Assembly (NCBI GenBank): GCA_024403995.1
Contig: JAKSQT010000011.1
Span: forward strand, 1 to 43,123
DNA length: 43,123 bases
Origin: Ruminococcus sp.
Lineage (GTDB): Bacteria > Bacillota > Clostridia > Oscillospirales > Ruminococcaceae
Reading direction: 5' to 3'
The notes under the pieces were generated by a model. That model made no database searches. It worked only from the letters and a program-made list of their open reading frames with translations, and was not told the DNA's origin. This document shows, piece by piece, positions 25,109-40,221 of this stretch (the stretch's first letter is position 1; each line of letters begins with the position of its first letter). A program made the position numbers and the translations under genes.

Positions 25109-25196
25109 ATCATCACCTCTCGGATTATTATGCCGCATATCGGTTAAAAAATACAAAAAAGAGACAGCATAATGACAGTGCTCTTACAGAAGTTTT

Positions 25197-25244
25197 GCTC
25201 TTTATCGGGATAACCCTTTTTCAAAAGGGTTTCCCTCAATATAA
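25197..25244. repeat. Short copy of palindromic repeat family C
   Basis: GCTCTTTATCGGGATAACC at one end and GGTTTCCCTCAATATAAG at the other correspond to the two ends of the 194-bp element at 32017-32210, joined by AACCCTTTTCAAAAGGGTT, a perfect hairpin. The interior of the long element is missing. TACAGA occurs on both sides (25185-25190 and 25245-25250), a possible target duplication. It lies between the CDF gene and the ger operon. Confidence 0.6.
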
Positions 25245-25296
25245 GTACAGATTTTCTATAAGAGTACCGCCGTTAAGCTATCAAAAATTGCGGTCG

Positions 25297-31715: not shown

Positions 31716-31744
31716 TTGACAAAAAATTCCGCATATGCTATAAT
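31716..31744 (+). promoter_or_regulatory. Predicted valS promoter
   Basis: TTGACA (31716-31721), 17-base spacer, TATAAT (31739-31744): a consensus promoter just upstream of the T-box leader. Confidence 0.8.
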
Positions 31745-31754
31745 ACTTTCATAC

Positions 31755-32247
31755 GTAAAGGCAATGAAGATGAGGAGTATGTGCAGGTCGGATGCAAAGA
31801 GAACTGTCGGTCGGTGTGAGACAGTGTGACGGCGGCACAGAAGTAGCATCGGAGCTGTATGTGCAAACGGCAAATCACCAAGTAGTGCATAACGTGTTCC
31901 TCACGTTACAGAGGGAGAGGCTGCATGGCTTCGCAGAGTGCGGAGATATCTCCGAATTCAGGTGGTAACACGGACTAAAGTTCGCCCTGAACCTTGACGT
32001 GATACTTTTATAGAAGATGCTTTTTATTGAGGGAAACCCTTTTGAAAAAGAGTTCTCCCTCAAACTCCCTTCCTAAAACTTTTGGGTGTTTAGCGTATCT
32101 GATATGGGGCAAATGTCCCATATCAGATACGCCATAATACTAAAAGTCTTTGGAAAGGGGTTCGGGGAAGAACCTTTCCTCAGAAAGGTTTGCCCCGATA
32201 AGGAGCGTCATTTATAGAAGTACACACATTATGGTTCGGGGCGTTTT
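31755..32247 (+). promoter_or_regulatory. Valine T-box leader, terminator split by a repeat
   Basis: A T-box riboswitch binding uncharged tRNA-Val. Stem I includes the distal AGAGAACTGT...GGTGTGAGACAGT part. The specifier reads AGAA-GTA-GCATCGGAGC, so the codon is GTA (31843-31845), valine, matching the downstream gene. Stem III is CGGAGA/TCTCCG (31941-31954). The T-box motif AGGTGGTAACACGG is at 31960-31973, and TTCAGG/CCTGAA closes the antiterminator. The terminator 5' arm CGCCCTGAACC (31983-31993) finds its partner GGTTCGGGGCG plus TTTT only at 32233-32247, because a 194-bp repeat (32017-32210) lies in the loop between them. Confidence 0.85.
32017..32210. repeat. Palindromic repeat family C, full copy, inside the valS terminator loop
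   Basis: A 194-base near-perfect palindrome. The centre is GCGTATCTGATATGGG/CCCATATCAGATACGC around GCAAATGT (near 32096-32135). The outer arms read inward from GCTTTTTATTGAGGGAAACC on the left and, in complement, GCTCCTTATCGGGGCAAACC on the right. It is flanked by perfect 10-base direct repeats, TTTATAGAAG (32007-32016 and 32211-32220), as expected of target duplication. It codes for nothing. A shortened copy is at 25197-25244. Confidence 0.85.
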
Positions 32248-32285: not shown

Positions 32286-34907
32286 ATGGCAAAGGAACTT
32301 GCAAAGTCCTATAATCCTAAGGATTTTGAGGACAGAATTTATGCTGCATGGAACGACAAGGGTTGTTTCAGAGCAGAGGTTGACCCGAAAAAAACACCGT
32401 ACACTATCGTGATTCCGCCTCCGAACATAACCGGACAGCTTCACATGGGACACGCTCTTGACGAAACACTTCAGGATATCCTTATCCGCTGGAAGCGAAT
32501 GAGCGGATATTCGGCACTCTGGCTGCCGGGTACCGACCATGCTGCTATCGCTACCGAGGCTAAGATCGTTGAGGCTATGCGCAAGGAAGGCATCAAAAAG
32601 GAAGACCTCGGACGTGAAGGCTTCATGAAGCGTGCATGGGAATGGAAAAAGCAGTACGGCGGACGTATCGTTGAACAGCTCAAAAAGCTCGGTTCTTCAT
32701 GCGACTGGTCGAGAGAACGCTTCACTATGGACGAGGGATGCTCAAAGGCTGTCAAGGAAGTATTCATCAAGTACTATGAAAAAGGTCTCATCTACCGTGG
32801 CGAGCGTATCATCAACTGGTGCCCTAAATGTAAGACATCTCTTTCAGATGCAGAGGTTGAATATGAGGATCAGGCAGGTCATTTCTGGCATCTCCGCTAC
32901 AAGATAAAGGATACTGACGGATATCTCGAACTTGCTACAACACGTCCTGAGACTCTCCTCGGCGATACCGCTGTTGCAGTAAATCCTGCCGACGAAAGAT
33001 ACAAGGATTTAGTAGGAAAAACTGTCATCCTCCCTATCGTTCACCGTGAAATTCCTATCGTTGCTGATGATTATGTTGAGATGGATTTCGGTACAGGCGT
33101 TGTTAAGATAACTCCTGCACATGACCCTAACGACTTTGAAGTTGGTCTGCGCCATAATCTCCCTGTTATCAACGTTATGAACGACGATGCTACAATCGTT
33201 GACGATTATCCGGCATATGCAGGCATGGACAGATACGATGCACGTAAAAAAATCGTTGAAGACCTCGATGCTGAGGGCGCACTCGTTAAAATCGAGGATT
33301 ACAGCCATAACGTTGGCACTTGCTACCGCTGCGGCACAACTGTTGAGCCAAAGGTTTCAACACAGTGGTTCGTAAAGATGAAGCCTCTTGCACAGCCTGC
33401 AATAGATGCTGTAAAGAACGGCGATACAAAGTTCGTTCCTGAGCGTTTTGACAAGACTTATTTCCACTGGCTCGACAATATCCGTGACTGGTGTATTTCC
33501 CGTCAGATATGGTGGGGACATCAGATACCTGCATTCTACTGTGATGAGTGCGGTGAAATGGTCGTTACCAAGGAAAGCAGCGCAGTATGTCCTAAGTGCG
33601 GCAAGCCTATGAGACAGGACCCTGATACACTTGATACATGGTTCAGCTCTGCACTCTGGCCGTTCTCAACACTCGGCTGGCCTGAAAAGACTGCTGACCT
33701 TGACTACTTCTACCCGACAAATACCCTTGTTACAGGCTATGATATCATCTTCTTCTGGGTTATCAGAATGATGTTCAGCGGTCTTGAAAACATGGGCAAA
33801 GTTCCGTTTGATACCGTTCTCATTCACGGTCTTGTACGTGATGCACAGGGACGCAAGATGTCCAAATCTCTCGGAAACGGCATCGATCCTCTTGAAGTTA
33901 TCAACGAATACGGCGCAGATGCCCTGAGATTTATGCTTGCAACAGGCAACTCACCGGGAAATGATATGCGTTACATCGATGACAAGGTCAAGGCTGCACG
34001 TAACTTTGCAAACAAGCTCTGGAATGCTTCACGTTTCATTATGATGAATCTCCCTGAGAATTTCGAGTTCAAGGGACTTCCGTCAGAACTTGAGCTTGAG
34101 GACAAGTGGCTCGTTAACAAGTTCAATCAGCTTGCTAAGGAAGTAAACGAAAACCTCGACAAATATGAGCTTGGCGTTGCTTCACAGAAGATCTATGACT
34201 TTATCTGGGATGTTTACTGCGACTGGTACATCGAGCTTACAAAGCCGAGAATTCAGGCAGGCGGCGAAACTATGGCTAAGGCACAGGCTGTTCTCGTATG
34301 GGCAATGCAGGGTATGCTGAAGCTTCTCCATCCGTTCATGCCGTTCATCACTGAGGAGATATGGCAGGTTCTCACAAACGAGAAGTCCATGATAATCCTT
34401 GAAACTTACCCGACATACGATGCTTCTATCGACTTCAATGCCGAGGAAAAGGCTTTTGAAAAGATAATTTCAGCTATCAAGGCTGTAAGAAATACACGTA
34501 CAGAAATGAACGTACCTCCGTCAGTAAAGGCTAAGCTTTTCATTGAAACTGCCGAGCCTGAGCTGTTCAGCAGCTGTTCACTGTTCTTTGAGAAGCTTGC
34601 TTCTGCATCAGCAGTAGAGACAGGCGCTAAGTTCGATATTCCTGACTCTGCAAACGCAGTAACCGATTCTGCAAGAATTTTCATTCCTATGGACGAGCTT
34701 GTTGACAAGGAAAAGGAAATTGCAAGACTTGAAAAGGAAAAGGAAAAAGTTCAGAAGGATATCGACTTCCTTAGCGGAAAGCTCAATAATCAGGGATTTA
34801 TCGCTAAAGCTCCTGAAAAACTTATCGAAGCTGAAAAAGCTAAGCTTGCAAAGGCTGAGGAGAAAATGGCTAAGATAAATCAGTCTATCGAGGCTTTCAA
34901 AAAGTAA
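32286..34907 (+). CDS. valS: Valyl-tRNA synthetase
   Basis: A class I aminoacyl-tRNA synthetase that charges tRNA-Val, 873 residues. The HIGH motif is NITGQLHMGHALDETLQD (about residues 39-55). The editing domain follows (TTRPETLLGDTAVAVNP), and KMSKSLGNG contains the KMSKS loop. A zinc-binding insertion shows CDECGEMVV and CPKCGKPM. The anticodon-binding region and the C-terminal coiled coil (ELVDKEKEIARLEKEKEK), typical of ValRS, are complete. AGGAG precedes ATG 32286. It is controlled by the Val T-box upstream. In Bacillus valS is followed by folC; here three genes and a GC-rich repeat lie between. Confidence 0.98.
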   Translation: MAKELAKSYNPKDFEDRIYAAWNDKGCFRAEVDPKKTPYTIVIPPPNITGQLHMGHALDETLQDILIRWKRMSGYSALWLPGTDHAAIATEAKIVEAMRKEGIKKEDLGREGFMKRAWEWKKQYGGRIVEQLKKLGSSCDWSRERFTMDEGCSKAVKEVFIKYYEKGLIYRGERIINWCPKCKTSLSDAEVEYEDQAGHFWHLRYKIKDTDGYLELATTRPETLLGDTAVAVNPADERYKDLVGKTVILPIVHREIPIVADDYVEMDFGTGVVKITPAHDPNDFEVGLRHNLPVINVMNDDATIVDDYPAYAGMDRYDARKKIVEDLDAEGALVKIEDYSHNVGTCYRCGTTVEPKVSTQWFVKMKPLAQPAIDAVKNGDTKFVPERFDKTYFHWLDNIRDWCISRQIWWGHQIPAFYCDECGEMVVTKESSAVCPKCGKPMRQDPDTLDTWFSSALWPFSTLGWPEKTADLDYFYPTNTLVTGYDIIFFWVIRMMFSGLENMGKVPFDTVLIHGLVRDAQGRKMSKSLGNGIDPLEVINEYGADALRFMLATGNSPGNDMRYIDDKVKAARNFANKLWNASRFIMMNLPENFEFKGLPSELELEDKWLVNKFNQLAKEVNENLDKYELGVASQKIYDFIWDVYCDWYIELTKPRIQAGGETMAKAQAVLVWAMQGMLKLLHPFMPFITEEIWQVLTNEKSMIILETYPTYDASIDFNAEEKAFEKIISAIKAVRNTRTEMNVPPSVKAKLFIETAEPELFSSCSLFFEKLASASAVETGAKFDIPDSANAVTDSARIFIPMDELVDKEKEIARLEKEKEKVQKDIDFLSGKLNNQGFIAKAPEKLIEAEKAKLAKAEEKMAKINQSIEAFKK

Positions 34908-38855: not shown

Positions 38856-38861
38856 AATGTT

Positions 38862-39096
38862 ATAACCCGTTGACTGAGAGAGTAGGCTTGCAGATATGTC
38901 ACCAGAGAGGGGCGGCTTGGTGTGAATGCCCTGACTAAAGCTTTCCGAAGTTCACTCACGAGGGGCGGTCTCCAACGGCTCTGCCAAGTAAATTCCGACG
39001 TAGGTCTGCGTTAAAGACAAGAGAGTGTCGGCTCTCCTGACAATGGGTGGTTTATAAACAAGATCGTGTCTTGTCCTGTTGGGCAGGGCTTTTTTT
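38862..39096 (+). promoter_or_regulatory. Phenylalanine T-box leader
   Basis: A T-box riboswitch for tRNA-Phe. Stem I distal parts are AGAGAGGGGCGG and GGTGTGAATGCCC. The specifier context CCGAAG-TTC-ACTCACGAG puts TTC (Phe) at 38951-38953. The T-box itself is diverged: ATGGGTGGTTTATAAAC near 39043-39058. GACAA before it pairs with TTGTC after it to form the antiterminator. The competing terminator is GTCCTG/CAGGGC (39073-39089) followed by seven T residues. It controls pheS and, by position, the restriction-modification genes after it. Confidence 0.85.
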
Positions 39097-39192: not shown

Positions 39193-40221
39193 ATGAAAGA
39201 ACAGCTCGAAACAATCGAAGTGCAGGCAAAACAAGAGCTTGAAAACTGCTCCGACATCAAGGCACTGGACGACCTGAGAATCAAGTTTCTCGGCAAGAAA
39301 GGAGAACTTACAGCAATTCTCAAACAGATGGGCAAACTTTCCGCAGAGGAAAGACCTGTCATCGGTCAGCTCGCCAACAAGGTAAGAGCAGACATCGAAG
39401 AAGCTCTCAACTCAAAGCTTGCGGCTCTCAAGGCTGATGCTCAGGCTGCAAAGATCAAGGAGGAGTCTATCGACATCACTCTCCCCGGCTCATACACTCC
39501 TTTCGGCAAGCTCCATCCGCTTACAAAGGTGGAGAACGAGATACGTGAGATATTCATGGGCATGGGATTTGACATTGCTGACGGCCCTGAGATCGATGAC
39601 GACTACCACGTTTTTGAGGCACTTAATCTGCCGCCTGACCATCCTGCAAGAGATACTCAGGATACATTCTATATCGACGGCACTGACGAAACTATCCTCC
39701 TCCGTACACAGACCTCATCTGTACAGGTACACGTTATGGAAACTCAGAAACCGCCTATCCGCATTATCTCACCGGGACGTGTATTCCGTTCAGATGCAGT
39801 TGATGCGACCCACTCCCCTCTTTTCCACCAGATAGAGGGACTCGTTGTTGACAAGGGCATCACAATGTCCGACCTCAAGGGCACTCTTGAAATGCTCATG
39901 AAAAAGCTCTACGGCAATGACTGCAAGCTTCGTTTCCGTCCTCACCACTTCCCGTTCACCGAGCCAAGCTGTGAAGTTGACATAAGCTGCTTCAACTGCG
40001 GCGGCAAAGGCTGCTCAATGTGCAAGGACGAGGGATATATCGAGCTTCTCGGCGCAGGCATGGTTCACCCGAAGGTTCTTGAAAACTGCGGCATCGACAG
40101 CAATGTTTATTCAGGCTTTGCTTTCGGTCTCGGACTTGAAAGAATGGTAATGGGACGCTATGATATCAATGACCTCCGCCTTCTCTATGAGAATGACGTG
40201 AGATTCCTTGAACAGTTCTGA
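39193..40221 (+). CDS. pheS: Phenylalanyl-tRNA synthetase alpha subunit
   Basis: The catalytic alpha subunit of the alpha2-beta2 enzyme that charges tRNA-Phe, 342 residues. It has an N-terminal coiled coil, LPGSYTPFGKLHPLT, class II motif 2 (GRVFRSDAVDATHSPLFHQIEG) split into its usual parts, and motif 3 (GFAFGLGLERMVMGRYDI). GAGGTG precedes the ATG. In most bacteria pheT follows at once. Here it does not: a restriction endonuclease gene begins 15 bases after the stop. pheT must be beyond the window or elsewhere. Confidence 0.97.
   Translation: MKEQLETIEVQAKQELENCSDIKALDDLRIKFLGKKGELTAILKQMGKLSAEERPVIGQLANKVRADIEEALNSKLAALKADAQAAKIKEESIDITLPGSYTPFGKLHPLTKVENEIREIFMGMGFDIADGPEIDDDYHVFEALNLPPDHPARDTQDTFYIDGTDETILLRTQTSSVQVHVMETQKPPIRIISPGRVFRSDAVDATHSPLFHQIEGLVVDKGITMSDLKGTLEMLMKKLYGNDCKLRFRPHHFPFTEPSCEVDISCFNCGGKGCSMCKDEGYIELLGAGMVHPKVLENCGIDSNVYSGFAFGLGLERMVMGRYDINDLRLLYENDVRFLEQF

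What the first reader, a model, noticed from the sequence alone, without database searches (positions are those of the whole stretch)
31983..32247. Repeat inserted in the loop of the valS T-box terminator
Seen: the terminator arms CGCCCTGAACC (31983-31993) and GGTTCGGGGCG (32233-32243, then TTTT) form 11 consecutive pairs, one of them G-U, but are 239 bases apart. The space contains a 194-bp near-palindrome flanked by perfect TTTATAGAAG direct repeats. Removing the element and one repeat leaves a normal loop of about 35 bases. Known: T-boxes in Firmicutes use a terminator right after the antiterminator. Inferred: because the element folds on itself, it may extend the terminator rather than break it, so regulation may survive. 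This would be a mobile palindrome tolerated inside a working riboswitch.
Basis: partly seen in the sequence, partly recalled or inferred. Interest (0 to 1): 0.8.

Follow-up and report, generated by a model that had tools for sequence, protein, structure and literature searches.

The report
Mobile palindrome nested in riboswitch terminators
A short non-coding repeat fills the loop of the stop signal in the valS gene switch of a rumen-type Ruminococcus, and the same repeat family sits between the two arms of hairpins at many gene ends and in two more such switches; it likely jumps into hairpin tips, where it is predicted to lengthen the hairpin and would leave the switch working.

Summary
The valS T-box terminator arms (31983-31993, 32233-32243) are complementary with 239 bases between; 27 other same-genus valS leaders measured have loops of 3-9. 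The insert belongs to a genus-wide family of self-folding repeats. In 74 of 85 scored copies the copy's own flanks are inverted repeats of each other, against 8.2% of mismatched flank pairs. At jag-mnmE one species carries a short copy at the tip of a hairpin; of 27 other same-genus loci with both flanks none has the core, and 12 show the identical stem closed by 5-8 bases. In the window's genome 3 of 8 T-boxes carry the family in the terminator loop; in three relatives 0 of 33. Folding pairs the arms and keeps the terminator-antiterminator gap at -8.5 kcal/mol. Corrections: TTTATAGAAG is probably no target duplication; the element is nearly the whole loop; the normal loop is about 5 bases, not 35. 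No transposase was found. Closest known: IS1272/TnSha1, which targets terminator hairpins but deletes part of them.

The parts
31716..31744 (+). Promoter-like TTGACA-17-TATAAT (12 of 12, extended -10) ahead of the T-box
   Evidence: consensus match only
31755..31992 (+). valS T-box leader (RF00230)
   Evidence: 121.3 bits, E 1.7e-26; GTA at 31843-31845 sits where a valine specifier codon is expected (read by eye, expected position recalled)
31957..31991 (+). Antiterminator: 31957-31962 pairs with 31986-31991; its 3' half is shared with the terminator 5' arm
31983..31993 (+). Terminator 5' arm CGCCCTGAACC
31994..32232 (.). The insert: the 239-base loop, element plus at most a few bases of original loop
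   Evidence: 27 other same-genus leaders measured have loops of 3-9; its left outer arm and core align with the insert of the second T-box, the right end only weakly
31996..32023 (.). Left outer arm of the element (relative of the TACTCATATAGAAAC motif); holds the left TTTATAGAAG (32007-32016)
   Evidence: the outer limit is approximate
32024..32198 (.). Conserved core TTATTGAGGG...CCCCGA of the family
32093..32132 (.). Central hairpin; its sequence differs between copies while its arms stay complementary in the copies printed
   Evidence: copy sequences, by eye; fold
32199..32230 (.). Right outer arm; holds the right TTTATAGAAG (32211-32220)
   Evidence: the outer limit is approximate
32233..32243 (+). 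Terminator 3' arm GGTTCGGGGCG, followed by TTTT 32244-32247
32286..34907 (+). valS, valyl-tRNA synthetase, 873 aa
   Evidence: relatives at up to 97% over the first 205 residues in Ruminococcus flavefaciens

Best explanation
The loop of the valS T-box terminator is filled by one copy of a short non-coding palindromic repeat family, most scored copies of which sit between the arms of gene-end hairpins in this Ruminococcus genome and its relatives; it was likely placed there by a transposase that recognises hairpin tips rather than a sequence, and it is predicted to fold as a continuation of the stem, so that the switch would still choose between terminator and antiterminator. Shown: the empty and filled sites, the family, the pairing of own flanks, and the gene-end context. 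Inferred: insertion at a hairpin tip (as a DNA cruciform or single strand) by an enzyme acting in trans. Predicted: RNA folding, and an unchanged terminator-antiterminator energy gap. Untested: termination, tRNA response, and whether RNA polymerase's longer run between the two arms (about 230 extra bases) gives the tRNA more time to act.
For: (1) Empty sites for valS: 28 same-genus T-box terminators measured, 27 with loops of 3-9 and this one with 239; further named loci, duplicates removed: 13 measured, loops 3-17. (2) Second filled/empty pair: at jag-mnmE, species G007 carries a short (119-nt core) copy between AACAACGGC and GCCGTTGTT; of 29 other loci 27 had both flanks, 0 of 27 hold the core there, and 12 of 27 have the identical stem CAACGGC/GCCGTTG closed by 5-8 bases, the window's own genome among them. 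(3) Own-flank inverted repeats: 85 copies, own score mean 38.1 against 14.7 for mismatched flanks, 74 of 85 above the 99% shuffle level against 8.2% of mismatched pairs; the second batch, chosen without regard to flanks, gives 27 of 29. RNA MFE pairs 15 or more of the 45 left-flank bases with the right flank in 82 of 85. (4) Context in the first 56 copies (genes = my ORFs of 70 aa or more): a gene 3' end faces the element within 150 bases in 52; of the 36 with both neighbours within 150 bases 20 are convergent, 16 tandem, 0 divergent; T-rich outside an arm in 33 of 56 against 22% of random positions. (5) 3 of 8 T-boxes of this genome hold the family in the terminator loop: valS 239 bases, a 270-aa membrane protein gene 202 bases, and a gene that looks like cysE 115 bases, all with paired arms and T-rich tails. 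(6) Energy gap terminator minus antiterminator: -8.5 filled, -8.5 after the in-script join of the flanks, -5.0 to -12.0 in seven of eight natural empty leaders; -7.1 for the second T-box, -13.0 for the third.
Against: No transposase or longer copy with the same ends was found: 18 unpaired left ends in the fetched loci, most of which reach only about 1.5 kb beyond the match, had no right end 450-3200 bases away, and none of the 25 Y1-transposase loci held an element end. 11 of 85 copies do not exceed the shuffle level, and 31 loci of the second batch lacked a recognisable end and were not scored, the second T-box copy among them; of 100 first-batch loci 56 gave a scored copy, the rest being duplicates or lacking an end. 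Part of the flanking arms is a family motif, so the border between element and target hairpin is fuzzy. At jag-mnmE 15 of 27 relatives have a variant or different hairpin, or none by my rule. At rlmH, ispE and hisE many relatives have an ordinary hairpin after the stop codon, but its sequence differs and some have none, so these sites do not prove that the arms existed before insertion (output partly cut). Energies are equilibrium values; of eight natural empty leaders one (L049) gave 0.0. 0 of 33 T-boxes in three relatives that also carry many copies are occupied in the terminator loop.
Confidence: 0.72

Rival explanations
1. The element makes its own palindromic flanks: the long hairpin is extended and its arms are kept complementary by template switching or by selection on structure, so that the flanking hairpins come after insertion.
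For: Outer arms share a family motif and differences between copies are matched on the other side; the central hairpin changes sequence with its arms still complementary.
Against: At valS the arms are conserved T-box sequence present in relatives without the element; at jag-mnmE the identical stem stands in 12 of 27 relatives without it. It may explain the inner part of the arms.
Confidence: 0.15
2. Insertion is random in gaps between genes and only copies inside terminator loops survive.
For: Gene-end spacers are generally safe sites; pneumococcal BOX, RUP and SPRITE are also enriched between convergent genes (PMC3049150, passages).
Against: Loops of a few bases are a small part of such spacers, and a landing beside a hairpin between convergent genes should be as harmless, yet 74 of 85 scored copies lie between matched arms.
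Confidence: 0.1
3. The insertion has broken the valS attenuator, which now reads through or terminates constitutively.
For: 239 bases separate the arms; RNA polymerase must copy them before the terminator can close.
Against: Arms and T-run are intact, the MFE pairs the arms, the energy gap is unchanged, and two further T-boxes of the genome are in the same state. All of this is sequence or prediction.
Confidence: 0.2
4. An ordinary miniature transposon that made a 10-bp target duplication (TTTATAGAAG) in a 35-base loop.
For: The perfect 10-base direct repeat exists; 10-base repeats are rare among mismatched flanks (0.19%), and 2 of 56 own pairs have one.
Against: Direct repeats are not enriched between own flanks overall (mean 5.64 against 5.38; 3 of 56 at 8 or more), and the other 10-base case is a palindrome, its own reverse complement; the left copy resembles the family's own arm motif; no relative measured has a loop of 35.
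Confidence: 0.06

Closest known systems
IS1272 / TnSha1 (IS1182 family), PMC4923244 and PMC5678879
   Same: Targets hairpins without sequence consensus, several of them confirmed transcription terminators, and makes no target duplication (passages read).
   Different: IS1272 is an autonomous insertion sequence of about 1.9 kb and removes part or all of the target hairpin; here the element is non-coding and short, and both arms remain.
REP-targeting insertion sequences (IS1397, IS621, ISPpu9/10, ISRm22), PMC1525189
   Same: Insert into palindromes; for ISRm22 at the palindromy axis (abstract and passages).
   Different: They recognise one repeated palindrome sequence; here the target stems differ from site to site.
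Pneumococcal BOX / RUP / SPRITE repeats, PMC3049150
   Same: Short folding repeats enriched between convergent genes; one BOX lies between two T-boxes of the trp operon (passages and section 8).
   Different: That BOX separates two T-boxes; it is not described as sitting inside a terminator loop, and the passages read report no hairpin-tip rule.
Group IIC introns
   Same: Use intrinsic terminators as addresses (PMC3522654, passages).
   Different: They insert downstream of the hairpin and are ribozymes; here the insert lies between the arms.
T-box riboswitch (RF00230)
   Same: The host leader is a normal T-box.
   Different: The terminator loop is 239 bases instead of 3-9.

Membership tests
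T-box leader (RF00230) | Covariance-model match above the gathering score | tested here: met
   121.3 against 93 bits
T-box leader (RF00230) | Mutually exclusive antiterminator and terminator ahead of the regulated gene | tested here: met
   Shared segment 31986-31991; both folds scored
T-box leader (RF00230) | Response to uncharged tRNA | not testable with these tools
   needs transcription assays
MITE | Short, non-coding, multi-copy, ends inverted | tested here: met
   40 places in the own genome by my count; terminal arms complementary
MITE | Target-site duplication | tested here: not met
   Direct repeats hardly commoner in own than in mismatched flanks
MITE | Ends shared with an autonomous transposon | tested here: inconclusive
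   None among the fetched loci, which are short; the own genome is 86% complete
IS1272/IS1182-type hairpin targeting | Insertion at hairpins of varied sequence | tested here: met
   74 of 85 scored copies; filled/empty pairs with the same stem at valS and jag-mnmE
[quoted passage not shown]
   Both arms intact at valS and jag-mnmE
IS1272/IS1182-type hairpin targeting | IS1182-family transposase | not tested
REP / IS200-IS605 (PATE) | Y1 (HUH) transposase in the genome | tested here: not met
   0 PF01797 matches in the own genome (86% complete); 14 of 36 genus genomes have one, and none of the 25 loci holds element ends
Group IIC intron | Insertion downstream of the terminator stem | tested here: not met
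   The insert lies between the arms

The most novel reading that the evidence does not exclude
A mobile element that reads DNA shape rather than sequence: it inserts at the tip of any hairpin, leaves both arms and no target duplication, and grows the stem. It thereby colonises terminators and riboswitches without breaking them, and in T-boxes it stretches the time during which the RNA can still choose.
Probability: 0.4. Interest if true: 0.8.

Novelty: new variant of a known kind. Interest (0 to 1): 0.66.

Why it matters
Hairpin tips would be a safe harbour for mobile DNA: insertions there lengthen a stem instead of breaking a gene or its stop signal. The family gives natural filled and empty pairs of the same terminator and the same riboswitch, so that loop size and decision time in attenuation can be tested directly. 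It would also extend hairpin-directed transposition, known from IS1272/TnSha1, to an arm-preserving mode.

Tried and rejected
TTTATAGAAG as a target duplication: disfavoured by the own-against-mismatched test.

IS200/IS605 or RAYT transposase as driver: no PF01797 match in the own genome, and no element end at any of the 25 Y1 loci.

A known RNA family: in the window Rfam gives only the T-box above the gathering score; the low-scoring microRNA matches are what a long hairpin is likely to give. No Rfam match in 20 loci around other copies; the second T-box locus was not among those 20.

A longer autonomous copy: none among the fetched loci. An IS1182 transposase search was not made; the 12 genome searches had gone to other questions.

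Orthologous terminators at rlmH, ispE and hisE: position often agrees, sequence does not, so they are not used as empty sites (output partly cut).

Homologues of the 270-aa protein in 10 other genomes of 36 (33% identity or less): too distant to look for an empty site of the second T-box; their leaders were not read.

Literature: searches listed no paper that by title or start of abstract reports an element inside a T-box terminator loop; only open-licence papers are held. Papers opened: PMC5678879 (abstract, passages), PMC4923244, PMC10969869 and PMC3522654 (passages), PMC1525189 (abstract, passages), PMC3049150 (passages, section 8). All others were seen in listings only.

Full report
What is there. 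The window carries a valS T-box leader (RF00230, 31755-31992, 121.3 bits) and valS at 32286-34907. The nearest named valS sequences are from Ruminococcus flavefaciens and related Ruminococcus. The terminator arms 31983-31993 and 32233-32243 pair over 11 positions, with TTTT after them, and 239 bases lie between. The insert and arms fold as one long stem: MFE -142.2 kcal/mol, shuffle mean -66.2, z -14.6, with the two arms paired.

Empty sites. One search gave 30 valS loci, own genome and 29 same-genus genomes. 29 gave a T-box core by my pattern and 28 a measurable terminator stem: 27 loops of 3-9 bases and one of 239, this window. L042 gave no core; L046 failed my stem rule although arms are visible. 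Of 80 named loci, 15 further distinct sequences gave a core by the same pattern and 13 a stem, with loops of 3-17. So the ancestral loop is about 5 bases, not 35, and practically the whole 239-base space is insert.

The family. The element matches 40 places in the own genome (my count from 56 rows; 40 of 129 first-look candidates were scored; 10 places are contig ends, so some may be two halves of one copy). It matches 24 of 36 same-genus genomes, own included, and 2 of 24 other genomes of the order weakly. The conserved core runs from TTATTGAGGG to CCCCGA (32024-32198 here). Outside it conservation drops within about ten bases, apart from species-level outer motifs such as TACTCATATAGAA in the own genome (57 matches at up to 2 mismatches against 15 for the reversed control). 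Copies differ in the central hairpin while keeping its arms complementary (by eye).

Position inside hairpins. I took the copies with both ends recognisable, without looking at flanks: first 56 (from 100 fetched loci, the rest duplicates or lacking an end), then 29 more. Scoring the left 60 bases against the reverse complement of the right 60 gives a mean of 38.1 for own pairs and 14.7 for mismatched pairs; 74 of 85 own pairs exceed the 99% shuffle level against 8.2% of mismatched pairs; the highest mean in 5000 permutations was 17.5. The own right flank is the best partner in 61 of 85. The second batch alone gives 27 of 29 above the shuffle level. The mismatched control already contains the shared outer motif. 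31 loci of the second batch lacked an end and were not scored. In RNA folds, 82 of 85 pair 15 or more bases of the left 45 with the right 45. In the first 56, 52 have a gene 3' end (my ORFs of 70 aa or more) facing them within 150 bases; of the 36 with both neighbours within 150 bases 20 are convergent, 16 tandem, none divergent; 33 of 56 have a T-rich stretch outside an arm against 22% of random positions in the same loci.

Did the hairpins come first? Two sites answer with sequence. At valS the arms are ancient. At the jag-mnmE junction, one species (G007, locus L429) has a copy of 119-nt core between AACAACGGC and GCCGTTGTT. I first looked at eight relatives by hand and then at all 29 other loci fetched: 27 have both flanks, none of the 27 holds the core there, and 12, the window's own genome among them, have the identical stem CAACGGC/GCCGTTG closed by 5-8 bases. 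The other 15 have variants of it, other hairpins or, in one, none by my rule. At rlmH, ispE and hisE many relatives have an ordinary hairpin shortly after the stop codon, but not of the same sequence, and some have none, so those sites are only compatible (output partly cut).

Three T-boxes, not one. The own genome has 8 T-box matches. Besides valS, the element sits in the terminator loop of a T-box before a 270-aa membrane protein gene (contig C121, locus L365): arms CGTCCTCAGACAG and CTGTCCGGGGGCG, 12 of 13 paired, loop 202, T-rich tail. A short version sits in a T-box before a gene that looks like cysE (contig C1, loci L383 and L489; the name is my reading of the first residues): arms GCCTCCGAG and CTCGGGGGC, 9 pairs, loop 115. 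The other five are free. In G013, G031 and G009, which also carry many copies, 0 of 33 T-boxes have the core in the terminator loop (for the valS T-box of G009); one in G031 has an element further downstream, past a normal terminator.

How it probably works. The switch depends on the energy of terminator against antiterminator. Forcing each fold gives a gap of -8.5 kcal/mol in the filled leader and -8.5 when the 194-bp piece with one repeat is left out in the script. Eight natural empty leaders gave -8.4, -9.2, -10.9, -10.9, -6.8, -12.0, -5.0 and 0.0, the last (L049) because both constrained folds returned the same energy. The second T-box gives -7.1 and the third -13.0. The insert is therefore predicted to be thermodynamically neutral, because it brings the arms together by folding on itself. 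What changes is time: RNA polymerase must copy about 230 more bases before the 3' arm exists. That this gives the tRNA longer to act is inference.

How it got there. No general target duplication: own flanks share direct repeats hardly more than mismatched flanks (mean 5.64 against 5.38; 3 of 56 at 8 bases or more, against 3.1%). Two own pairs share 10 bases, which mismatched pairs do in 0.19%; one of them, GTAAATTTAC in L016, is its own reverse complement, the other is the valS repeat. TTTATAGAAG on the left resembles the family's arm motif. The most economical reading is insertion at the tip of a hairpin, seen by an enzyme as a cruciform or single-stranded loop. The enzyme is unknown: no Y1 transposase match in the own genome, and no longer copy among the fetched loci, most of which reach only about 1.5 kb beyond the match.

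What is known. IS1272 and the transposon TnSha1 insert into hairpins of varied sequence, several of them confirmed terminators, without target duplication, but remove part or all of the hairpin (PMC4923244, passages; PMC5678879, abstract and passages). REP-seeking insertion sequences recognise a repeated palindrome (PMC1525189, abstract and passages). A pneumococcal BOX lies between two T-boxes (PMC3049150, section 8). Arm-preserving insertion at hairpin tips of varied sequence, with three T-boxes of one genome occupied, was not reported in any title or start of abstract that my searches listed; only open-licence papers are held.

Limits. The genome is a draft of 179 contigs, 86% complete. T-box and valS lie in the expected order on the two sides of the insert, which argues against misassembly there. 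Folding is equilibrium prediction. Motif limits are approximate. The targeting enzyme, in vivo termination and tRNA response are untested.

Noticed in passing
window 25196-25266: A second, shortened copy of the same family lies in the window (92% identity over 38 bases of the core); it also has the outer TACTC-type motif (locus L228).
   Followed up: partly
window 38861-39081: A weaker T-box match (72.3 bits, below gathering) lies ahead of a 342-aa gene that looks like pheS (39193-40221); its terminator loop holds no element.
   Followed up: partly
L012 and L014 (own genome), near the core's left hairpin: The left part of these two element copies carries another GC-rich repeat with its own short palindromes, as if one hairpin repeat had entered another; L023 has a different interruption.
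   Followed up: no
L495 (G031 contig C24, 240700-241600): A T-box with a normal terminator is followed by an element copy further downstream, past the terminator.
   Followed up: no
L375 (G000 contig C1, 44025-44377): This T-box match is about 120 bases longer than usual; a tandem-like GGCGTGTRTATGAGTTGC repeat is visible inside it.
   Followed up: no
L250 (G020, downstream of rlmH) and L004/L241 (own genome, downstream of rlmH): Two species carry the element after the same gene with different outer arms, which looks like two independent insertions at the same gene end.
   Followed up: partly
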